A stretch of DNA of 64,000 nt from Massilia sp. WG5 (GTDB lineage: Bacteria; Pseudomonadota; Gammaproteobacteria; Burkholderiales; Burkholderiaceae_D): contig NZ_CP012640.2 of the NCBI RefSeq assembly GCF_001412595.2, forward strand, positions 2,480,001 to 2,544,000, written 5' to 3'. The translations under genes and the position numbers were made by a program. Below the pieces are notes generated by a model. It worked only from the letters and a program-made list of their open reading frames with translations, was not told the origin of the DNA and ran no database searches. Shown here piece by piece: positions 100 to 64,000 of this stretch; the first letter of the stretch is position 1, and every line of letters begins with the position of its first letter.

Positions 100-2349
100 A
101 TGAATCTGAATAGTCATATCCAGCCAGCAAGCTCGCCGCTCCAGCTCTGGGGCGGCCTCGAATGCACCGTCAACCGCGTACGCGACAACTACTTCTCCCA
201 GATGGACCGCAACGGCCATGCAGAACGCCTGCAGGACCTGGAACGTTTTGCCTCGCTAGGCATCCGCGCGATCCGCTATCCGGTGCTGTGGGAGCGCACG
301 GCTCCCGACGGCATCGACAGCGCCGACTGGTCGTGGCCGGATGAACGCCTGCCCGTGCTGCAGCAGCTGGGCGTCACGCCCATCGTCGGCCTGGTCCACC
401 ACGGCAGCGGCCCGCGCCATACCAGCCTGGTGTCCGAAGACTTCCCGGAAAAGCTGGCGGCGTATGCCGGCGCGGTCGCCCGGCGCTACCCCTGGGTCGA
501 GTACTACACCCCGGTCAACGAGATCTGCACCACCGCCCGCTTCTCCGGCCTGAACGGCGTCTGGTACCCGCACGGCAACAGCGAAGCGCTGTTCGTGCGC
601 GCCCTGATCGTCCAGTGCCGCGCGACCGTGCTGGCGATGCGCGAGATCCGCAAGGTCAACCCCGCTGCCAAGCTGGTGCAGACCGACGACCTGTCGCGCA
701 CCTACGGCACGCCGGAAATGGCCGAGATCACGAATTTCTTCAACGAGCGCCGCTGGCTCGGCTGGGATATGTTGTGCGGCAAGATCGACGAGCAGCACCC
801 GCTGTGGGATTACCTGCTCGAGTCGGAAGCGAGCGCCGAAGAGCTGCTCTGGTTCAAGGAGAACCCGTGCCCGCCCGACATCATGGGCGTCAACTATTAC
901 ATCACCAGCGAGCGCTGGCTCGACCATCGCCTGGATCGCTATCCGGAAAGCCATCGCACCCAGTACCGAGGGATCCCGCACGCCGACATGGAGTGCCCGC
1001 GCGTGCTGGCCACGCCGACCCCGGGCATCGGCCCGCTGCTGCAGGAAACCTGGGACCGCTACGGCCTGCCGATCGCGGTCACCGAAGCCCATATCGACGC
1101 CAACCGCGAAGACCAGCTGCGCTGGCTGGTCGAGATCTGGAACGCCGCCCGCAAGGTGCAGGAGAGCGGCGCCGACATCCGCGCCGTCACGGTCTGGGCC
1201 CTGCTCGGCTCCTTCGACTGGAACTGCCTGGTGACCGAATGCCGTGGCTATTACGAGCCGGGCCCCTACGACGTGCGCGGTCCGCAGCCGCGCCCGACCG
1301 CGGTGGCGCACCTGATGCGCGAACTGGCGACCGGCCGGCCGCTGTCGCATCCGGTGCTGCAGGGCCAGGGCTGGTGGCGCCGTCCGGGCCGCTTCTGGAC
1401 CAAGCCGGTCGCGACCCGCACCGCGGTGGCCGACATCAACGACCGCGGCGCCTTCCGCTCGACCTTCCCGCAGCCGATCCTGATTACCGGCGCCACCGGC
1501 ACCCTGGGCCGCGCCTTCGCCCGCATCTGCGAGCGGCGCAACCTGAGCTGCCACGTGCTGAGCCGCCAGGAGATGGACATCGCCGACCCGGCGTCGGTGG
1601 AAGCGGCGATCCTGCGTTATAAACCGTGGGCGATCATCAACGCCAGCGGCTACGTGCGGGTCGACGACGCCGAGCAGGAGCTCGAGCGCTGCATGCGCGA
1701 GAACGCCCACGGCCCGACCGTGCTGGCGCTGGCGGCGATCCGCCACGCGGTGCGCTTCCTGACCTTCTCCAGCGACCTGGTGTTCGACGGCGGCCTGGGC
1801 CGCGCCTACGTCGAGTCCGACCGGGTATCGCCGCTGAACGCCTACGGCCGCAGCAAGGCCGAGGCCGAGCGCCGCGTGCTGGATTCCGATCCGCAGGCCC
1901 TGGTGGTGCGCACCAGCGCCTTCTTCGGCCCCTGGGACCAGCACAACTTCGTGAGCCAGGCGCTGGCGGCGCTGAGCGAAGGCCGGCCGTTCGCAGCGGC
2001 CGGCGACATGACGGTGTCGCCGACCTATGTGCCGGACCTGGTGAATGCCTGCCTCGACCTGCTGATCGACAAGGAGTCCGGCATCTGGCACCTGAGCAAC
2101 GGCGAGGCCATGAGCTGGGCCGAGCTGGCCCGGCGCGCCGCGCTTGCTGCCGGCATCGACCCGGCCGGCATCGAGGAACGTCCGGCCGCCGAACTCGGCA
2201 TGGCGGCGCCGCGCCCGCTCCACAGCGCCCTGACCAGCGAACGCGGACTGATCCTGCCGTCCTTCGGCGATGCCCTGGCGCGCTACCTGCGCGAACGTGA
2301 AGTGGGCGAGCAGCGCAGCGGCGGCGGGGAGGCGCACTACGCCAGCTGA
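100..2349 (+). CDS. GH1-like glycosidase fused to RmlD-type sugar-nucleotide reductase
   Basis: The 749-residue protein joins two enzyme folds. Residues 1 to about 430 look like a family 1 glycoside hydrolase (TIM barrel). The acid/base Glu is in TPVNEI (E141, the usual NEP with P changed to I) and the nucleophile Glu is in AVTEAH (E329). From about residue 457 there is a dTDP-4-dehydrorhamnose reductase (RmlD)-like Rossmann domain with a GATGTLG nucleotide loop and a YGRSK catalytic pair (Y582, K586). The ATG at 100 was chosen over an in-frame ATG at 31 because AGGAAG lies just upstream and the fold begins after it. It has its own strong terminator. Substrate is unknown; both catalytic glutamates are present, so hydrolase activity is possible. 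The link to the nearby LPS genes is inference. Confidence 0.85.
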   Translation: MNLNSHIQPASSPLQLWGGLECTVNRVRDNYFSQMDRNGHAERLQDLERFASLGIRAIRYPVLWERTAPDGIDSADWSWPDERLPVLQQLGVTPIVGLVHHGSGPRHTSLVSEDFPEKLAAYAGAVARRYPWVEYYTPVNEICTTARFSGLNGVWYPHGNSEALFVRALIVQCRATVLAMREIRKVNPAAKLVQTDDLSRTYGTPEMAEITNFFNERRWLGWDMLCGKIDEQHPLWDYLLESEASAEELLWFKENPCPPDIMGVNYYITSERWLDHRLDRYPESHRTQYRGIPHADMECPRVLATPTPGIGPLLQETWDRYGLPIAVTEAHIDANREDQLRWLVEIWNAARKVQESGADIRAVTVWALLGSFDWNCLVTECRGYYEPGPYDVRGPQPRPTAVAHLMRELATGRPLSHPVLQGQGWWRRPGRFWTKPVATRTAVADINDRGAFRSTFPQPILITGATGTLGRAFARICERRNLSCHVLSRQEMDIADPASVEAAILRYKPWAIINASGYVRVDDAEQELERCMRENAHGPTVLALAAIRHAVRFLTFSSDLVFDGGLGRAYVESDRVSPLNAYGRSKAEAERRVLDSDPQALVVRTSAFFGPWDQHNFVSQALAALSEGRPFAAAGDMTVSPTYVPDLVNACLDLLIDKESGIWHLSNGEAMSWAELARRAALAAGIDPAGIEERPAAELGMAAPRPLHSALTSERGLILPSFGDALARYLREREVGEQRSGGGEAHYAS

Positions 2350-2376
2350 TCCGGCAGCTTTGTTTCAGCGAAATCG

Positions 2377-2412
2377 CAACAGCCGCGCCCTGAAAAGCGC
2401 GGCTGTTGTCTT
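2377..2412 (+). terminator. Rho-independent terminator after the GH1-RmlD gene
   Basis: A perfect 12-bp stem (CAACAGCCGCGC / GCGCGGCTGTTG) with an 8-nt loop is followed by the T-rich TCTTTC. It starts 27 nt after the stop codon at 2349. Confidence 0.85.
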
Positions 2413-2504
2413 TCTACCCTTAATCAATAGCATTTTATTTACCGTCTACACTTCTTTAGTTACACTGCGTTACACGATGTTACTCTGTGCAACTTGGTGT
2501 ACTC

Positions 2505-3449
2505 ATGAAGCTCTATCAAGATGAATTTGGCTGGGCCGAACGGCTCGTCGCCACCGCCGCTCCTTCAGTGACCCTGGACTCCGCGGTACCCTCCCACCTG
2601 TCGCGCCTGCCGTTGCTGCGCGAGCGGATCAAGATCCGCCTGCGCGCCCTGCTTCATCCGCAGCAGACGCCGGCCTGGCTGCGCCTGCTGAATTCGCATC
2701 CGGCCTTTTCGGAATACGTGCGCAACTGTCCACGCTTCCTGTACAAGGTCTACCGCCCCTACATCAGCAATGCCCTGCGCCCCGAGGACAGGCTGGCGGC
2801 GATCCAGGCCCACTACGAGTTCATGTTCCGCCGTGGCCTCGGCCAGACGGTGGCGCGCGCCAGCCTGGGGCCGGTGGTGCTGGCGGCCAGCGAGGGCAAG
2901 AGCGGCCTGCCCTACGAGATCCAGCTGCGGACGGTGAACATGTTCGACCGCGAGGGCGAACTGGTGCTGCAGCTGGACCAGGACGGCAAGACGATCTACA
3001 CGATCGCCTTCACGGTGGCGCCGCGCGACGGCCGCCCCGCCCTCAGCATCGGCTGCGTCCAGGGCGGCAAGCTGGATGATGCGCGCGAGGCGATCCGCCT
3101 GGCCACCCGCGACCTGCACGGCATCCGCCCGAAGCAGCTGATGGTGAGCCTGGTGCGCCAGCTCGGCCACGAATACGGCTGCGAGCGCCTGCACCTGGTG
3201 TCGAACCGCAACCGCGTGATCTACAAGGCGATCCGCCACGGACGCGTGCTGGCCGACTACGACCTGCTGTGGGAAGAGCTGGGTGCGACGAAGAACGCCA
3301 GCGGCGACTACGAGCTCGACTGCGCCCCGGTCGCGGCGCCGGACCTGGAGGCGATTCCGTCGAAGAAGCGTTCGGAAGCGAAGAAGCGGTATGAATTGAT
3401 GTGCCGCCTGGCCGGCGGGGTGTGCGAGAGCTTGCGGGCCCGCGGCTGA
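2505..3449 (+). CDS. VirK/YbjX family (DUF535) protein
   Basis: This 314-residue protein matches the VirK/YbjX (DUF535) family in length and pattern. Features seen are HPAFSEYVRNCPRFLYKVYRPY near residues 64-90, the central GEGxLxLxL-type strand region (EGELVLQLDQDGKTIYTIAF) and a C-terminal KKR-rich end. In enterobacteria the family is linked to virulence, outer-membrane lipid changes and antimicrobial-peptide resistance; the biochemical function is not settled. ATG 2505 (MKLYQDEF) is preferred over ATG 2487, since conservation starts there. It converges on waaF, separated by a large inverted repeat. Its placement beside LPS genes fits an envelope role, which is inference. Confidence 0.82.
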   Translation: MKLYQDEFGWAERLVATAAPSVTLDSAVPSHLSRLPLLRERIKIRLRALLHPQQTPAWLRLLNSHPAFSEYVRNCPRFLYKVYRPYISNALRPEDRLAAIQAHYEFMFRRGLGQTVARASLGPVVLAASEGKSGLPYEIQLRTVNMFDREGELVLQLDQDGKTIYTIAFTVAPRDGRPALSIGCVQGGKLDDAREAIRLATRDLHGIRPKQLMVSLVRQLGHEYGCERLHLVSNRNRVIYKAIRHGRVLADYDLLWEELGATKNASGDYELDCAPVAAPDLEAIPSKKRSEAKKRYELMCRLAGGVCESLRARG

Positions 3450-3457
3450 TCAACATC

Positions 3458-3531
3458 AAACCGGGGTCAGACTCCCGATTTTGGCAATAACTCGGTGGAC
3501 ATTGCCAAAAATCGGAGTCTGACCCCGGTTT
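3458..3531. repeat. Large imperfect inverted repeat (REP/BIME-like) between convergent genes
   Basis: Two 31-nt arms (3458-3488 and 3501-3531) are near-perfect reverse complements around a 12-nt loop. The outer part is AAACCGGGGTCAGACTCC and the inner part CCAAAAATCG or its variant. It fills the gap between the stop codons of the DUF535 gene and waaF. It could work as a two-way terminator. The GGGGTCAGACTCC core resembles interspersed palindromes seen in beta-proteobacteria, often tied to REP-associated transposases; that link is from memory, not shown here. Confidence 0.7.
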
Positions 3532-3539
3532 GTTTTTGC

Positions 3540-4577
3540 TTAAGCCCGCGCCAGGATCGGCCCCAGCTCGCTCCACACCCGATCTACGCTCATCTTGTTC
3601 ATGCAGTCGTGATGCCCCAGCGGGCATTCGCGCTGACGGCAGGGCGAGCATTCCAGGCGCAGCGAGACCGTGCGCGCCACTTCCGACAGCGGCGGCGCGT
3701 AGTTCGGGTCGGTCGAGCCGTACAGCGCCACCACCGGGCGGTTCAGGGCCGAGGCGATGTGCAGCAGGCCGGAGTCGTTCGAGACCACCGCGCGCGCCTG
3801 CGCCAGCAGGGCGATGGCGTCGTCGAGCGACGTCTGGCCGGCCAGGTTGCGGATCGTGCCGGCCGCCGCGCCTGCCTGGGCCTGGACCTGTTCGCAGGTT
3901 TCCAGGTCGTTCGGCGATCCCATCAGCGCAATCTGCACGTCCGGCATGAGCCCGGCCACGCGTTCGGCGAGCTGCCCGTAGTGGGCCGGCGGCCAGCGCT
4001 TGGCGATGCCGAACTCGGCGCCCGGGGCGAAGGCCACCAGCGGACGGTCCAGCGCGATGCCGAGGCGCCGGGCCACGGCTTCGGTTTCTTCGCCGGCCAC
4101 GACCAGCGAAGGCCGCGCCAGTTGCCCGGGCAGCGGCAGCTCGGGCTCGCGCGCCAGCGCCGCGTAGAACGGCACCATCGAGCGCGGCGGGGTCTCGTCG
4201 TGGTGCATCACGTTGACCATCCCGTAGCGCATCTCGCCCTTGTAGCCGACCCGGCGCGGAATCCGCGCCAGCCACGGGATCAGCGCGTATTTCAGGGTGT
4301 TCGGCAGCACGTAGGCATCGCTGTAGCCGCGCTGGCGCAGCTGGCTGGCGGTCTTCAGGCGCTCGCCCAGTTGCAGGGCGCGGTGGCGGAACGGCGTCAC
4401 CATGATGTGGTCCGCTTCCTGGATGCGCTTCCAGACCGGCACCACCTGCGGCGGGGCCAGCACGTCGATGGCGCGCTCCGGGTGGGCCTGCTTGAGCAGG
4501 CGCAGCAGGGGCTGGGCCATCACGGCGTCGCCGATCCAGTTCGGCGAAATGACGAGGGTACGCGCCTGGCCGCTCAT
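3540..4577 (-). CDS. waaF: Lipopolysaccharide heptosyltransferase II
   Basis: The 345-residue GT9 enzyme transfers the second L-glycero-D-manno-heptose to the LPS inner core at the cytoplasmic face. Features are the N-terminal LVISPNWIGDAVMAQPLLRLLK (WaaF hallmark WIGDxVM), the mid-region GAEFGIAKRWP (sugar-nucleotide site) and SNDSGLLHIASALNRPVVALYG near the C-terminus. CSPCRQRECPLGHHDCM near the end is the usual cysteine-rich WaaF tail. Its start overlaps the msbA stop by 4 nt, so the two are translationally coupled, with the O-antigen-ligase-like gene further upstream. Confidence 0.93.
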   Translation of the reverse strand: MSGQARTLVISPNWIGDAVMAQPLLRLLKQAHPERAIDVLAPPQVVPVWKRIQEADHIMVTPFRHRALQLGERLKTASQLRQRGYSDAYVLPNTLKYALIPWLARIPRRVGYKGEMRYGMVNVMHHDETPPRSMVPFYAALAREPELPLPGQLARPSLVVAGEETEAVARRLGIALDRPLVAFAPGAEFGIAKRWPPAHYGQLAERVAGLMPDVQIALMGSPNDLETCEQVQAQAGAAAGTIRNLAGQTSLDDAIALLAQARAVVSNDSGLLHIASALNRPVVALYGSTDPNYAPPLSEVARTVSLRLECSPCRQRECPLGHHDCMNKMSVDRVWSELGPILARA

Positions 4578-6319
4578 AGCGCTTCCACCGGGGTCGTGAA
4601 CTGCAGGCGGTACAGGTTGGCATACGTGCCGCCCTTCGCCAGCAGTTCTTCATGCGTGCCCTTCTCGACGATGCGGCCGCGCTCCATCACGACGATCAGG
4701 TCGGCGCGCTCGATGGTCGACAGGCGGTGCGCGACCACGAAGGTGGTGCGGCCGGCCATCAGGGTCTCGAGCGCGGCCTGCACGGCGCGCTCCGATTCGT
4801 TGTCCAGCGCCGACGTTGCTTCGTCGAGGATCAGGATCGGCGCGTCCTTGTAGATGGCGCGCGCGATCGCCACGCGCTGGCGCTGCCCGCCCGACAGGCG
4901 CAAACCGTTCTCGCCGATATTCGTCTCGACGCCTTCCGGCAGGCGCGCCACCACGTCGTCCAGGTGGGCGGCCTTGATTGCCGCGGCCAGGCGCGCATAG
5001 TCGACTTCCTCGACGCCGTAGGCGATGTTGGCCTTCAGCGTGTCGTCGAACAGCACCACGTTCTGGCTCACCAGCGCCATCTGGGCGCGCAGGCTGGGCA
5101 GCATGATGTCCTGGTAAGGCACGCCGTCCAGCAGGATGCGGCCGCCTTCCGGCTCGTAGAAGCGGGTGACCAGGTTGACGAAGGTCGACTTGCCGCCGCC
5201 CGACATGCCGACCAGGGCCACGGTCTGGCCCGGCTTCACGTCGAGCGAGACGCCGTCCAGCGCCGGCGCGTGCGCGTTCGGGTAGCGGAAGACCACGTTC
5301 TCGAAGCGCACCTGGCCCTGGGCGCGGCCCAGCACCCGGGTGCCCGGATCGTGCTCGACCGGCGCGTCGATCATCTCGAACACGGTCTCGGCGGCGGCGA
5401 TCCCGCGCTGCATCGGGCCGTTCACTTCGGCCAGCGCCTTCAGCGGCGTCAGCAGCATCAGCATCAGGGTCACGAACTGGGTGAATTCGCCGACCGTCAT
5501 GTCGGCCTGGATCGCCAGCACCACCACCAGCGACAGCGCCAGCGAGGTGGCGATCTGGGTCACCGGGGTGGTGGCGGCGAAGGCCACCGTCATGCGCTGC
5601 GAGAAGCCGCGCAGGGCCTCGCTGCGCAGGAAGAAGCGGTGGTTTTCGTAGCGCTCGCCGGCGAACACGCGGATCACCTGGTGGCCGCGCGCGGCTTCCT
5701 CGACCACCTGCGTCATCTCGGCGGTGACGCGCTGGTTCTCGCGGTTCAGGTGCCGCAGGCGCTTGCTGGTGGTGCGCACGATCACGGCGGTCAGCGGCAC
5801 CACCACGATCGCGACCAGGGTCAGCTTCCAGTTCAGCCACAGCAGCGAACCGACCAGGCCGATCACCACCAGGGCGTCGCGCACGAAGGAGATGAACACC
5901 GACTGGATCATGTCCACGACCTGGCGCACGTCGCCGACCACGGTGTTGATCACCTTGCCGGTCGACTCTTCCTGGAAGCGCGCCACCGGCAGGCGCAGCA
6001 GGCGTTCGAAGGCCTGGGCGCGCAGGTCGTTCAGGACCCGGCTCAGGACCCAGTTGTTGTAGTAGGCGGTGGCGAAGGTGCCGATGCCGCGCAGGACGAA
6101 GATCGACACCAGCACGCCCGGGATCCACCACAGGGAGAACGGGACCTTCTGCCTGAAGCCCAGGTCCATCAGCAGTTGCAGCGCCTTGCCCAGCAGCGGC
6201 TGGGTGGCGGCCGTCAGCGCCATCGCCAGCAGCGACAGGAAGGCCCGCCCGCGATAGGGTTTGACGATCGCCCAGAGGCGCTTGATGATGATACGGTTAT
6301 CCAATTTTATCTTTCGCAT
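4574..6319 (-). CDS. msbA: Lipid A export ATP-binding/permease protein MsbA
   Basis: The 581-residue half-transporter is a type IV ABC exporter that flips lipid A-core across the inner membrane. Residues 1 to about 320 hold the six-helix ABC transmembrane domain. The nucleotide-binding domain shows Walker A GMSGGGKST, signature LSGGQRQRVAIARA, Walker B ILILDEATSALD and the switch His in VAHRLST. It lies between the O-antigen-ligase-like gene (its start overlaps that gene's 3' end by 23 nt) and waaF (4-nt overlap), so all three look like one LPS transcript. Close relatives include many MsbA/lipid exporters; the waaF context supports this call. Confidence 0.93.
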   Translation of the reverse strand: MRKIKLDNRIIIKRLWAIVKPYRGRAFLSLLAMALTAATQPLLGKALQLLMDLGFRQKVPFSLWWIPGVLVSIFVLRGIGTFATAYYNNWVLSRVLNDLRAQAFERLLRLPVARFQEESTGKVINTVVGDVRQVVDMIQSVFISFVRDALVVIGLVGSLLWLNWKLTLVAIVVVPLTAVIVRTTSKRLRHLNRENQRVTAEMTQVVEEAARGHQVIRVFAGERYENHRFFLRSEALRGFSQRMTVAFAATTPVTQIATSLALSLVVVLAIQADMTVGEFTQFVTLMLMLLTPLKALAEVNGPMQRGIAAAETVFEMIDAPVEHDPGTRVLGRAQGQVRFENVVFRYPNAHAPALDGVSLDVKPGQTVALVGMSGGGKSTFVNLVTRFYEPEGGRILLDGVPYQDIMLPSLRAQMALVSQNVVLFDDTLKANIAYGVEEVDYARLAAAIKAAHLDDVVARLPEGVETNIGENGLRLSGGQRQRVAIARAIYKDAPILILDEATSALDNESERAVQAALETLMAGRTTFVVAHRLSTIERADLIVVMERGRIVEKGTHEELLAKGGTYANLYRLQFTTPVEAL

Positions 6320-60782: not shown

Positions 60783-60820
60783 TGGTAGGCCTCCCCGGAG
60801 TCGAACCGGGCACCAACGGA
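60783..60820 (-). tRNA. 3' half of an intron-split tRNA with CAU anticodon
   Basis: On the minus strand: anticodon-stem strand TCCGT, variable loop TGGTG, T-arm CCCGG-TTCGACT-CCGGG, acceptor GAGGCCT, A73 and encoded CCA. It continues the half at 63532-63572. Joined, all four stems pair, with a single G1-U72 wobble at the end of the acceptor. Confidence 0.93.
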
Positions 60821-60892
60821 GTAGGATGGGTAGCCAACCCCTTTCATAGCGCGGCGAAGCTGCGCTATGCAGGAAGTCAACCACCTTCCTCC

Positions 60893-60926
60893 GAACGCAA
60901 CGTGCAAGTTTCCAAGCATTACGCTC
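60893..60926 (-). ncRNA. Group II intron domain V
   Basis: Exactly 34 nt, starting GAGCG and ending GCGTTC, with a GAAA tetraloop at positions 15-18 and the CG bulge at 25-26. The AGC catalytic triad is present. Two tandem U-U oppositions lie just below the loop. Confidence 0.88.
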
Positions 60927-60966
60927 TCCATCAAGGCACGCTTTTACGCGAACTACGTCTTCCTCA

Positions 60967-62832
60967 CTATCTCGCCGCTGCGATGGGGTCGTGCAAATCC
61001 GACAACTTAAGGCCGTCATATATACCCTTGTGAATTTTCACATGACAGGGCGTACATGCTGGAATCTGCTTTCTGTTCAGGATAGCCATGAGTCGATTGA
61101 ACCCGGTCACCTTTTCCCCCATCTTCTTGACATGGCGTATGTGATGCATCGCCACTTTCTCGTCAGAACCACAAATCACGCAGTTCATCCAGAGTTTGCT
61201 TCGGGTACGCAGTGTTATGCTCTTCTGGAGAGCATAATCTGGGCTGGGAACCTCGCCGATCTTGAATCTGGTCGGGTCTCGTTTCCAGTCCACTACCGTC
61301 GGGAATGAAATGAAAGCCGTCTTAGCCTTCCGCTTCTTCTCGATCGCCAGCGCGTCACCAAATTTCTGGAAGATTCGTCTAACCGAAGTCCTATGCTTTC
61401 CAGCTAAGGTCTTCGCCGCTGAGTATTTCAGGATGTATTGAATCCTGCGTAGATCTGGATAGTTGTCTACGAAGCTATAGAAATTTATTAGCCCTCTCAG
61501 CACCGCTCCAGCCATCGAGACGATTTGATCGTCATCGAGGAACATCCATGCAGCCTTTCCGAGCGGGCGCCCGTCAAGGTCGCAGAAGCCTCTGGAATTT
61601 AGTCTGGTCACCAGCTTGTCGCACGGTGCAAACATTTGGGGTAACCATCCGGTAACCCGCTTCTGGTAATTGCGGCCGTTCTTATCAACGATACGAACCA
61701 CCTTCTGCGAATTAGCACCCACCTTAATTCTAGTACCCAAGAAGAAAGCCTCTTCATCTTTGGCATGTCGAATGTGGGTCTTCTCCATGTTCAGAGTAAG
61801 TCCGAGTTTGTCCGCCATGAATGCTTTGACCTCATCACGGATTTGCACGGCCAGATGTTTTGGACCATTGATTCCCACACACCAGTCGTCCGCGTATCTT
61901 ACATACTTCATCCTAATAAACGATCCGTCGTCCCGCATGGGACTGGATTGCTTCTGGGCCGTAAGAAGGGCTTTCAACTCTTTGAGTAGTTCCTTACGTT
62001 CGTCGGCGTCTTGTCCGGGCTCGCCTAGTTTCGAGCGTACCCTTTCAATCTGCTTCTGACGGTAGTTGTACTCGGTCGAGGTTCTTTTCTTATCCCCTTT
62101 CTCATGTGTCCCAATTAGTCCTGCCACGAACTCATCGAGTTCGTGAAGGAAGATGTTACACAGGATAGGAGATACGATTGAGCCTTGGGGTGTACCGACG
62201 ACACTGTCTACGGGTGTTTTGAACTCGTAGTAGCCTGCCGTTAGTGCTTTCCTAATCAGGTTTATGAATCTTTCATCCTTGATCCTACGACGCAGGATGT
62301 TGATTAGGATGTCGTGGTCAATACAATCGAAGGCAGCCTTAACATCGCCTTCAATGATCCACGTTACTCCGCTCCAGTTGTTGCGGATAGACTTTAACGC
62401 TGTGTGGCAGCCTCGCTTGGCTCTGAAGCCATGACTGTCGTCGCTGAAACTGCTCCCATAGGGGCTGTCGTACACAGCTTCGAGGATCATTCTCATGACC
62501 TCTTGTACGATCTTGTCCCGAGGAGGAGCGATACCTAGCGGACGGGTTTTACCATTTGCCTTGGGAATGTGAACACGTCGAGCACGGGAGAACTGGAAAG
62601 ACTCGTCCTTGATGTTCGATATGATCCTCTCAATGGTCCTCAGTGAGAATTCATCGAGTGTAGTCCCGTCGGGACCTGGCGTCATGTTTCCGGGGACGCT
62701 TTTGAGCTTCTGATACGCCACGACATACAAGTCGGTTTTGTACATTAGCCTATATAGGTCTCCGTTGACCCAACCGGGTTTGGCGTTGAGTTTACGTAGT
62801 GTTTCTAGTCGTTCCAGGTCTTTATTACTCAT
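60967..62832 (-). CDS. ltrA: Group II intron reverse transcriptase/maturase with HNH endonuclease
   Basis: The 621-residue intron-encoded protein has RT blocks RT0-RT7 (PGPDGTTLDEF, RARRVHIPKANGKTRPLGI, GSSFSDDSHGFRAKRGCHTAL, GTPQGSIVSPILCNIFLHELD). The catalytic YADD is near residue 313, a maturase X domain follows (about 440-520), and an HNH endonuclease ends it (CVICGSDEKVAMHHIRH ... CTPCHVKIHKG, about 555-605). All catalytic motifs are intact and there is no frameshift, so retrohoming could be live. AAAGG lies 9 nt before the ATG. It is encoded within intron domain IV. Confidence 0.94.
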   Translation of the reverse strand: MSNKDLERLETLRKLNAKPGWVNGDLYRLMYKTDLYVVAYQKLKSVPGNMTPGPDGTTLDEFSLRTIERIISNIKDESFQFSRARRVHIPKANGKTRPLGIAPPRDKIVQEVMRMILEAVYDSPYGSSFSDDSHGFRAKRGCHTALKSIRNNWSGVTWIIEGDVKAAFDCIDHDILINILRRRIKDERFINLIRKALTAGYYEFKTPVDSVVGTPQGSIVSPILCNIFLHELDEFVAGLIGTHEKGDKKRTSTEYNYRQKQIERVRSKLGEPGQDADERKELLKELKALLTAQKQSSPMRDDGSFIRMKYVRYADDWCVGINGPKHLAVQIRDEVKAFMADKLGLTLNMEKTHIRHAKDEEAFFLGTRIKVGANSQKVVRIVDKNGRNYQKRVTGWLPQMFAPCDKLVTRLNSRGFCDLDGRPLGKAAWMFLDDDQIVSMAGAVLRGLINFYSFVDNYPDLRRIQYILKYSAAKTLAGKHRTSVRRIFQKFGDALAIEKKRKAKTAFISFPTVVDWKRDPTRFKIGEVPSPDYALQKSITLRTRSKLWMNCVICGSDEKVAMHHIRHVKKMGEKVTGFNRLMAILNRKQIPACTPCHVKIHKGIYDGLKLSDLHDPIAAAR

Positions 62833-62918
62833 CCGAGTAAACCTTTCGCTTCTATCGACTTCCTTGCGTCTTCGCTTTCCCTTGCCCCAGAGTTACCTAG
62901 GCTGTATTGGGTGTACTT

Positions 62919-62995
62919 TGGTAGGCCGTGCAGGACTTGAACCTGCGACCCCGGAATTATGAGTTCCTTGCTCTGACCAGCTGAGCTAACGGCCC
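62919..62995 (-). tRNA. Intact tRNA with CAU anticodon inside the group II intron
   Basis: The 77 nt include the encoded CCA. Acceptor GGGCCGT/ACGGCCT has a G1-U72 wobble, D-stem GCTC/GAGC, anticodon arm AGGAA-CTCATAA-TTCCG (one A-G mismatch at the stem base), variable loop GGGTC and T-arm GCAGG-TTCAAGT-CCTGC. The anticodon is CAU: either minor isoleucine tRNA (lysidine-modified, reads AUA) or elongator methionine. C4-G69 and C5-G68 are present, as in TilS-recognised tRNA-Ile2. It differs clearly from the split tRNA, so it is not a recent duplicate. Confidence 0.9.
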
Positions 62996-63227
62996 AACAT
63001 TTCTACCACAACGGGTACTATCGAATAGTCCGTTGCCGAATCGTTCCACTACGTTGCCGTAACTTCATCGATTCTACCTGAGTTGCATATCTCAACTCAA
63101 GCTTCTAGGGATTACTCCCCGTAGGCAATCCCGTAGTTAACACATTCTCGCGGTCCAGTTTTAGGTGTCCCATACATCCTTCTCATCCCTACTTGGGTGC
63201 CGGCTGACGAAGAAGCTTGAGAGGTAT

Positions 63228-63233
63228 TCATAA
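63228..63233 (-). other. EBS1 of the group II intron
   Basis: TTATGA on the minus strand is the exact complement of TCATAA, the six bases just before the 5' splice site in the split tRNA. It defines the target choice. Confidence 0.7.
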
Positions 63234-63531
63234 TCGCTACCGCTCATTCGTCAAGATGGACGTAAATATGCGTGTCCACCAGTTGCTCGTGATGCTCCGG
63301 TCGGATTAGGTTTCAGACAATCAGCCTTCACCATGACTGGCCTAACTGACAGACCTGTTAAGCTTGCATATTAGCTTTCGTCTGCCTTTTGACGGCATGC
63401 TGCAGTCCCCTCAAAGTTTCCTTTTCAGGTATCCTAGGGTTTACCTCCCTAGTAAGCCGCTGTTTTACCCACATTGCTTCAGTGGGGTGAAACTATTTTC
63501 ACAACGAGAATGCGCCCTATCTACGGCGCAC

Positions 63532-63572
63532 TTATGAGTCCGCTGCTCTAACCAGGCATGAGCTAGAGGCCC
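63532..63572 (-). tRNA. 5' half of the intron-split tRNA with CAU anticodon
   Basis: On the minus strand: GGGCCTC, TA, D-stem GCTC/GAGC, anticodon-stem strand GCGGA and loop CTCATAA, where the exon ends. The split is between the last loop base (38) and the 3' anticodon stem (39). TTGGT after the anticodon arm and C4-G69/C5-G68 favour tRNA-Ile2 (CAU), but elongator Met is not excluded. Confidence 0.93.
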
Positions 63573-63691: not shown

Positions 63692-64000
63692 TTAGCTGCT
63701 CCCCTCGAGGAAACTCTTCAGCTTGTCAGAGCGCGACGGATGGCGCAGCTTGCGCAGGGCCTTGGCTTCGATCTGGCGGATGCGCTCGCGGGTGACGTCG
63801 AACTGCTTGCCGACTTCTTCCAGCGTGTGGTCGGTCGACATCTCGATGCCGAAGCGCATGCGCAGGACTTTCGCCTCGCGCGGGGTCAGCGAATCCAGCA
63901 CGTCCTTCACCACGCCGCGCATCGAGGCATGCAGGGCCGCGTCGGACGGGGCCAGCGTGTTGTTGTCCTCGATGAAGTCGCCGAGATGCGAATCGTCGTC
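63692..64000 (-). CDS. rpoD: RNA polymerase sigma factor RpoD, C-terminal end (partial)
   Basis: The last 102 residues of the housekeeping sigma are present; the gene runs off the window at 64000. Visible are the end of region 3 ([19 protein letters not shown]) and all of region 4, with [48 protein letters not shown] (the -35-binding helix-turn-helix) and the terminal [10 protein letters not shown] terminator and the intron-split tRNA follow. Confidence 0.97.

What the first reader, a model, noticed from the sequence alone, without database searches (positions are those of the whole stretch)
62919..62995. The intron carries an intact tRNA with the same anticodon as the one it interrupts
A complete CAU tRNA lies inside the intron, upstream of the RT gene. 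It shares the CTCATAA loop and the odd G1-U72 closing pair with the split tRNA, but has a different body. This looks like a cargo replacement gene that would make insertion harmless, similar to the way some islands restore tRNA genes. I know of no described group II intron that does this.
Basis: partly seen in the sequence, partly recalled or inferred. Interest (0 to 1): 0.95.

Follow-up and report, generated by a model that had tools for sequence, protein, structure and literature searches.

The report
Intron carrying a replacement tRNA gene
An intron of the self-splicing, mobile kind cuts a bacterial tRNA gene in two at its anticodon loop and carries inside itself an intact tRNA gene with the same anticodon, a match seen for four different anticodons across related introns, so the passenger would likely replace the gene that the insertion breaks.

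Summary
A 2,711-nt group II intron (60821-63531, minus strand) splits the CAU tRNA gene downstream of rpoD and contains a complete CAU tRNA (62919-62995) upstream of its RT/HNH gene. The joined exons equal, letter for letter, the uninterrupted tRNA of two congeners. It is not a one-off: in five distinct elements whose target could be read (Massilia, Cupriavidus, a second Massilia intron, two Pseudomonas plasmids) the intron sits at tRNA position 38/39, and the tRNA inside has the anticodon of the one it splits: CAU, CAU, UGA, UAA, UAG. A sixth, damaged copy (Microvirga) fits, but its target anticodon is open. EBS1 lies at the same alignment place in all five and is complementary to the anticodon loop of its own target. 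Of 89 loci with related RTs, none shows a tRNA inside the DNA held, and none shows a tRNA 3' half behind the RT (14 of them hold under 400 nt there). The passenger stands before or behind the RT gene, so it was probably gained or moved more than once. Best reading: a natural 'home-and-rescue' element. Anatomy and matching are shown; expression, splicing and rescue are inferred. Eight open-access literature searches on the theme listed no such report.

The parts
63532..63572 (-). 5' half of the split tRNA (CAU, predicted tRNA-Ile2), ends at position 38; last 6 nt TCATAA = IBS1
   Evidence: joined flanks are read as tRNA-CAT and equal the intact gene of L018 and L031
60821..63531 (-). group II intron, 2,711 nt, GTGCGCC...CCATCCTAC
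63228..63233 (-). EBS1, TTATGA, complementary to anticodon loop 33-38
   Evidence: same alignment place (columns 314-315) in 5 introns
62919..62995 (-). intact cargo tRNA, anticodon CAU, CCA encoded
60967..62832 (-). 621-aa group II intron reverse transcriptase/maturase with C-terminal HNH endonuclease
   Evidence: YADD and HNH residues conserved
60821..60928 (-). domain V and VI
   Evidence: RF00029, 51.4 bits
60783..60820 (-). 3' half of the split tRNA, from position 39 to CCA
63692..64000 (-). 3' end of rpoD, upstream neighbour of the split tRNA
   Evidence: a query of rpoD end plus 5' tRNA half matches in 386 of 399 order genomes

Best explanation
A group II intron with a reverse transcriptase/endonuclease gene splits the CAU tRNA gene (predicted tRNA-Ile2) behind rpoD at the 3' edge of the anticodon loop and carries inside itself an intact tRNA gene with the same anticodon, which would likely supply the tRNA that the insertion disables or slows. 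Steps: (1) shown by sequence: EBS1 of the intron is complementary to the anticodon loop of its target, so aiming the intron means reading an anticodon. (2) inferred: the RNP retrohomes into that loop of the one or few genes with this anticodon. (3) shown by sequence: the joined exons make an intact tRNA; inferred: splicing restores some of it. (4) inferred: the cargo is cut out of the intron RNA, or of a transcript of its own, by RNase P and 3' nucleases and works as an ordinary tRNA, so insertion into a single-copy essential tRNA gene is tolerated from the first moment and the site stays habitable even if splicing fails. (5) shown in part: the cargo keeps the loop but has another anticodon stem (21 of 40 stem positions differ over four pairs, 0 of 28 loop positions); inferred: this helps to keep the intron from homing into its own cargo. 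The element thus works like a home-and-rescue drive, and switches target and cargo together.
For: Anticodon matching in five elements, four anticodons. Insertion at 38/39 in all five joins made (window, L002, L010, L043, L044) and by the 5' side in L003; EBS1 complementary to the own loop over 6-7 nt at the same alignment place. No tRNA and no tRNA 3' half in 89 loci of relatives, among them two inside the same RT clade (L046, L054). Cargo has two locations: before the ORF (window, L002, L003, L010, L043) and behind it (L044, L012). Cargo keeps tRNA folding: two double compensatory changes, pairs 6:68 and 29:43 of the 77-nt string, between Massilia and Cupriavidus; the Ser and Leu cargo have long variable arms. 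Need for it: in G445 (genome of L002) a BLAST with the cargo shows no other intact Ser-UGA gene; in the own genome the other two places of the CTCATAA-arm pattern are a different tRNA, predicted elongator Met. Cargo is intact in two damaged copies (L012/L159, L011).
Against: No expression, splicing or growth data. Every split tRNA whose two halves are held is still intact, so splicing may suffice. The window cargo has one A-G mismatch in the anticodon stem (20 of 21 pairs), a GGGGTC variable loop like that of the own predicted elongator tRNA-Met, and a D loop shorter than that of the target; in B. cenocepacia the D loop adds to recognition by TilS (PMC12514573, section 4), so modification of the cargo is uncertain. 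No promoter above chance (3 found on both strands, 2.6 expected). EBS2 could be proposed for only 2 of 4 introns, so the self-protection step is weak. The L044 loop has complements of 6-7 nt elsewhere in other introns too, so there only the aligned place counts. The BLAST for Ser-UGA did not show the split halves either, so it could miss diverged genes. For Microvirga the target anticodon may be CAT or CCT.
Confidence: 0.72

Rival explanations
1. The cargo tRNA works inside the intron RNA and not in translation: its anticodon loop is a copy of IBS1 and can pair with EBS1 in cis, as a decoy that times splicing or blocks re-attack on mature tRNAs, or it is a structural module of the ribozyme.
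For: The loop is identical to IBS1 in all four pairs (0 of 28 positions differ), and in window, L002, L003, L010 and L043 the tRNA sits before the ORF, next to the ribozyme core.
Against: A decoy needs a loop, not a whole tRNA with CCA, variable arm and compensatory changes in the acceptor stem. In L044 and L012 the tRNA lies behind the ORF. The relatives L046 and L054 have no such tRNA.
Confidence: 0.13
2. The cargo is a passenger without effect on the host: introns that live in tRNA genes pick up tRNAs by recombination, and splicing alone keeps the host alive.
For: The split tRNAs are intact. Two hosts are plasmids, where tRNA genes may be dispensable (my inference); one of them carries a tRNA array.
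Against: Random capture would not give the same anticodon four times (about 4e-7 if some 40 anticodons were equally likely, a rough figure of mine). Cargo is only 71-82% identical to the split gene, so it is no fresh copy of it, and it is intact in two damaged copies.
Confidence: 0.1
3. Selection acts on tRNA supply: the intron is a carrier that brings extra tRNA genes to hosts or plasmids, and the shared anticodon merely reflects which tRNAs are in demand.
For: C. oxalaticus and Microvirga plasmids hold such tRNAs beside decayed introns.
Against: Demand does not explain why the cargo equals the tRNA that the same intron splits, nor the agreement with EBS1.
Confidence: 0.05

Closest known systems
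Group II introns with RT/HNH protein, retrohoming type (Evolution of group II introns, PMC4424553, passages read)
   Same: GTGCG...AC ends, domain V, EBS1-IBS1, RT with maturase domain and HNH
   Different: most bacterial ones lie outside housekeeping genes according to that review, which names some exceptions; the passages I saw describe none with a tRNA inside or aimed at bacterial anticodon loops
Plastid trnK intron with matK (PMC4424553, passages)
   Same: group II intron with maturase gene inside an essential tRNA gene; the window RT has a weak, sub-threshold MatK_N match (22.3 bits, cut-off 31.4)
   Different: MatK has lost RT activity according to that review; no second tRNA is known to me inside the trnK intron (recalled)
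Group I introns in bacterial tRNA genes, Leu-UAA, fMet, Azoarcus tRNA-Ile (PMC4033280, PMC4390854, passages)
   Same: self-splicing intron in the anticodon loop of a bacterial tRNA
   Different: group I ribozyme, most at position 37/38; PMC4033280 says that tRNA introns of bacteria are group I introns; RT and tRNA cargo are not mentioned in the passages I saw
Fungal mitochondrial introns with duplicated host-gene ends (Tremella, PMC7315562, abstract and passages)
   Same: mobile intron brings a piece of the gene that it enters
   Different: only an N-terminal piece that replaces part of the host gene, not a whole separate gene
Home-and-rescue gene drive HomeR (PMC7968924, abstract and outline)
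   Same: homing into an essential gene together with a replacement for it, in design
   Different: engineered Cas9 system in flies; here natural, guided by EBS1, in bacteria
Integrative elements that rebuild a tRNA gene end (recalled, no call)
   Same: damage to a tRNA gene is made good by the element
   Different: integrase, rebuilds the same gene by its att site; no second complete tRNA inside an intron

Membership tests
group II intron | 5' GUGYG and 3' AY ends | tested here: met
   GTGCG...TAC in window, L002, L010, L044; GTGCG...AAC in L043
group II intron | domain V/VI | tested here: met
   RF00029 51.4 bits, gathering 40; L010, L043, L044 60.1-68.0
group II intron | RT with maturase domain | tested here: met
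   RVT_1 107.4 and Intron_maturas2 97.4 bits, HNH 23.2 with cut-off 23; TIGR04416 242.5, below its cut-off of 300
group II intron | EBS1-IBS1 pairing | tested here: met
   6-7 nt exact in window, L003, L010, L043, L044 at one alignment place
group II intron | splicing and retrohoming | not testable with these tools
   needs RNA or a mobility assay; empty sites with the exact joined sequence exist
home-and-rescue drive (works like) | element inserts in a gene and carries an intact equivalent | tested here: met
   same anticodon in 6 of 6 copies with readable target: window, L002, L003, L010, L043, L044
home-and-rescue drive (works like) | rescue copy resists homing | tested here: inconclusive
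   anticodon stem differs at 21 of 40 positions (count), EBS2 found in 2 of 4 introns only
home-and-rescue drive (works like) | target needed by the host | tested here: inconclusive
   G445: no other intact Ser-UGA gene found by BLAST with the cargo, which also missed the split halves; own genome: no other candidate for Ile2 by one pattern; plasmid hosts not tested
home-and-rescue drive (works like) | rescue gene is functional | not testable with these tools
   intact fold and compensatory changes only
tRNA-Ile2 (split and cargo) | C4:G69, C5:G68 and, for Burkholderia TilS, G3:C70 (PMC12514573) | tested here: met
   read from both sequences; the own predicted eMet genes begin GGTGATA and lack them; a tilS match over the cut-off is present
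tRNA-Ile2 (split and cargo) | lysidine at C34 and charging with Ile | not testable with these tools
   needs mass spectrometry or charging assay; the D loop of the cargo differs from that of the target

The most novel reading that the evidence does not exclude
A clade of bacterial group II introns lives in anticodon loops as natural home-and-rescue elements: EBS1 reads the anticodon, and a recoded, homing-resistant tRNA of the same anticodon travels inside, so that the element can invade single-copy essential tRNA genes at little cost, makes the host depend on it, and switches tRNA family by changing EBS1 and cargo together.
Probability: 0.55. Interest if true: 0.96.

Novelty: new variant of a known kind. 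Interest (0 to 1): 0.91.

Why it matters
Most bacterial group II introns lie outside housekeeping genes, where their splicing matters little to the host (PMC4424553). Here is a way round: bring the gene you break. It would be a natural counterpart of the engineered home-and-rescue drives, with an RNA guide whose target (an anticodon) and antidote (the tRNA with that anticodon) can be checked against each other by sequence alone, so the idea can be tested on every genome. It would also add tRNA genes to what group II introns carry, and could make a host depend on a mobile element for an essential tRNA.

Tried and rejected
Looked for further copies: 2 of 62 genomes of the genus (one of them the own), 1 of 399 of the order (own), 1 of 398 of the Cupriavidus family (G770, the contig of L003), 1 of 312 of the class (own), 1 of 210 of the family (own), 1 of 213 of the phylum (own), at E limits from 1e-100 to 1e-140; some genomes were drawn in more than one search. 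The element is rare in these samples. A split-tRNA pattern in viral contigs gave 21 stretches, 20 without any tRNA and one with a tRNA-Thr 2 kb away: I take them as chance. The protein search scored 7,996 candidates and gave 1,188 relatives at E <= 1e-100, 120 listed, whose DNA could not be fetched, so the true share of tRNA carriers is unknown.

Rejected: tRNA as an old neighbour of the site (20 of 29 rpoD loci of other genomes have an intact CAT tRNA, none like the cargo). Rejected: cargo as a duplicate of the own predicted elongator Met (71% identity). Not settled: EBS2 (2 of 4), promoter of the cargo (not above chance), domain of the cargo (partly by eye). The weak Plastid-ycf2 Rfam matches lie on the complementary strand of tRNAs and are ignored.

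Row choices: the 89 loci without tRNA are L004, the eight loci L046-L053 and the 80 viral loci L054-L133; 91 viral relatives were found and the tool kept 80. Some are cut by contig ends: 14 hold under 400 nt behind the RT, and six of the 89 hold under 900 nt before it. Their insertion sites were read for L046 and L054 only; for the rest I tested for a tRNA 3' half behind the RT. L012/L159 is counted apart because its 5' half is missing; L003 has no 3' half (contig end), and its intron holds an N and a repeated stretch, perhaps an assembly fault. In L043 a further tRNA-Leu(CAA) lies outside the intron.

Full report
WHAT IS THERE. On the minus strand, behind rpoD (63692-64000), a CAU tRNA is split in two: 41 nt at 63532-63572 and 38 nt at 60783-60820. 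Between them lies a 2,711-nt group II intron, 60821-63531, GTGCGCC...CCATCCTAC, with a domain V/VI match of 51.4 bits and a 621-aa reverse transcriptase/maturase with an HNH domain. At 62919-62995 the intron holds a complete tRNA with anticodon CAU and encoded CCA (Rfam 64.1 bits). One match to the RT was found in the 6.2-Mb genome at E <= 0.001.

THE SITE. Joined, the two halves are read as tRNA-CAT and are identical in 79 of 79 letters to the uninterrupted tRNA behind rpoD in two genomes of the same genus, L018 and L031. A query of the rpoD end plus the 5' tRNA half matches in 386 of 399 genomes of the order; of the 30 loci fetched, 29 are from other genomes and 20 of these show an intact CAT tRNA within 1.5 kb, none of them the cargo. 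In the own genome the pattern GAGC-N6-CTCATAA has four places: cargo, split gene, and two tandem genes of another kind (GGTGATA...), which I read as elongator Met. The split tRNA and the cargo both have C4:G69 and C5:G68, the pairs by which TilS of E. coli knows tRNA-Ile2, and G3:C70, which matters to TilS of Burkholderia cenocepacia (PMC12514573, passages and section 4); a tilS match over the family cut-off is present. So both are predicted to be Ile2; this was not tested. The shared G1-U72 is real, but several intact rpoD-linked genes of relatives have it as well.

COPIES. L002 (Massilia sp. YIM B02763) has the same intron at the same site, 2,647 of 2,711 letters equal (97.6%), while the rpoD stretch is 93.2%, the spacer 58% and the 300 nt downstream 44% identical; the 3' exon differs by two letters that keep the T stem paired. 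That fits separate entry into each host's own gene (inferred). L003 (Cupriavidus lacunae, RT 87%) has the same 5' side behind rpoD (its 3' side is not held), and its cargo differs at 13 of 77 letters: two pairs changed on both sides and stayed paired, one pair changed on one side, and the A-G mismatch of the window is a G-U pair there. In all three the cargo stands at the same place before the RT gene.

OTHER tRNAs. L010, a second intron in genome G445 (RT 52%), splits tRNA-Ser(UGA) and carries tRNA-Ser(UGA); G445 holds the 4,863 nt of L009 letter for letter as in L002, so it is most likely the genome of strain YIM B02763. L043, Pseudomonas sp. FeN3W plasmid (RT 43%), splits tRNA-Leu(UAA) and carries tRNA-Leu(UAA). 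L044, P. silesiensis plasmid pPL1 (RT 41%), splits tRNA-Leu(UAG) within a plasmid tRNA array and carries tRNA-Leu(UAG), here behind the RT gene. ARAGORN reads each pair of joined exons as a tRNA with exactly that anticodon. L012/L159, Microvirga lotononidis, is a damaged copy: the RT start is missing and a second group II intron sits in domain V, but a CAT tRNA lies behind the RT and a tRNA 3' half follows. That 3' half is found in an intact CAT tRNA of M. ossetica but also in CCT tRNAs of Microvirga VF16, so its target anticodon stays open. Count: 6 of 6 copies with a readable target anticodon (five elements) carry the same anticodon.

HOW THE TARGET IS READ. In the five joins the cut is at position 38/39, the 3' edge of the anticodon loop. 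At one alignment place (columns 314-315 of A2) each intron has the complement of its own loop: TTATGA for TCATAA (window, L003), TTTCAA for TTGAAA, TTTTAA for TTAAAA, ACCTAA for TTAGGT. A given hexamer at a fixed place has a chance of 2.4e-4. Complements of the L044 loop also occur elsewhere in the other introns, so the place is what counts. EBS1 is in effect an anti-anticodon, and the choice of target and the choice of cargo must agree. A possible EBS2 at intron nt 220 pairs with the 5' anticodon stem in L010 and L044, not in window or L043.

CARGO VERSUS TARGET. Identity 71-82%. The 7 loop letters are equal in all four pairs; the ten anticodon stem letters (-12 to -8 and +1 to +5) differ at 6, 6, 5 and 4 places for window, L010, L043 and L044 (my count from the sequences). 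This is what a homing-resistant copy would look like, but tRNA stems vary anyway, so it is only suggestive. Among the 20 intact rpoD-linked genes the window cargo is nearest to L037 (84.4%) and the L003 cargo to L026 (88.3%), nearer than to the own predicted eMet (71.4% and 74.0%).

PLACE IN THE INTRON. Relatives without cargo at this place fold a short hairpin behind the ACGGAG motif (L044, L046, L054, and the nested Microvirga intron). In L043 the minimum-energy fold closes the same hairpin round the tRNA. In L010 the fold also encloses the tRNA, but with another 5' strand; in window and L003 the tRNA aligns there, but the four pairs that I see by eye are not in the minimum-energy fold. I take this as the tip of domain III, with reserve. 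In L044 and L012 the tRNA is behind the ORF. Two places within one clade mean that cargo was probably gained or moved more than once (inferred).

CONTROLS. No tRNA in 80 viral loci, in L046-L053 or in L004: 0 of 89. ARAGORN would not see a split tRNA, so I also looked for a tRNA 3' half (T arm, acceptor strand, CCA) within 700 nt behind the RT: it is found in window, L002, L010, L043, L044 and L159 (longer stretch there) and in 0 of the 89 (14 of them hold under 400 nt there). In the RT tree (FastTree, 64 sequences) window, L003, L010, L012, L043, L044, L046 and L054 form one clade (support 0.983). L046 sits in the HEARO/omega-RNA (weak match, below the gathering score) before an iscB-like gene and L054 in a tnpB-like gene (both genes named by eye); neither has a tRNA. 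So within the clade tRNA cargo goes with tRNA target.

IS THE CARGO USED? Indirect signs: the fold is kept under change; Ser and Leu cargo have long variable arms; in G445 a BLAST with the cargo finds no other intact Ser-UGA gene, only Ser-GCU and Ser-GGA, though it missed the split halves too; and the tRNA is intact in two damaged copies, Microvirga and L011, a Cupriavidus oxalaticus plasmid with a CAT tRNA between short remnants similar to the intron (downstream similarity reached by 0-2 of 2,000 letter shuffles, upstream by 13-48; no domain V). Against: the split genes are intact, the window cargo has one mismatch, its D loop differs from the target's, and no promoter stands out.

LITERATURE. 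Ten searches in the open-access PMC library, eight of them on this theme (not 107 and 108), listed 0 to 20 papers each; in those titles and abstract starts I saw no group II intron with a tRNA inside, and none in a bacterial tRNA gene. Look-ups of the word 'tRNA' in PMC8637638, PMC12350094, PMC8919778 and PMC4424553 gave nothing of the kind; PMC4033280 (passages) names only group I introns for bacterial tRNAs; PMC4390854 (passages) mentions both groups in general. Subscription journals are mostly not held, so absence is not proven.

VERDICT. Anatomy and anticodon matching: shown. A rescue function by a natural home-and-rescue intron: most likely, about 0.7, untested.

Noticed in passing
L046 about 3363-5950 (Cupriavidus necator C39 plasmid p1): A relative of the intron with a broken RT interrupts the HEARO/omega-RNA just before an iscB-like gene (RF02033, 48.8 bits, below its gathering score).
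   Followed up: partly
L054 about 3478-5990 (IMG/VR contig): A relative of the intron sits inside a tnpB-like gene, so this RT clade visits RNA-guided nuclease loci as well as tRNAs.
   Followed up: partly
L159 about 1760-4160 (Microvirga lotononidis plasmid): Twintron: a second group II intron with its own RT lies in domain V of the tRNA-carrying intron.
   Followed up: partly
L044 1153-6596 (P. silesiensis pPL1): Plasmid tRNA array with nine intact tRNAs, one of them the cargo, and a split Leu-UAG gene.
   Followed up: no
L160 3965-4040 and L161 3963-4038 (Microvirga VF16 plasmids): Plasmid tRNAs with anticodon CCT and the same 3' half as the CAT tRNA of M. ossetica; the anticodon loop of L160 ends in CTAC like the intron's 3' end.
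   Followed up: no
L011 3440-3660 (C. oxalaticus plasmid unnamed4): Intact CAT tRNA between short remnants similar to the intron, without RT or domain V.
   Followed up: partly
L003 3084-3345 (Cupriavidus lacunae): An N and a repeated stretch of domain I inside the intron, perhaps an assembly fault or a small insertion.
   Followed up: no
window 60967-62832: The RT has a weak sub-threshold match to the plastid MatK N-terminal domain (22.3 bits, cut-off 31.4).
   Followed up: no
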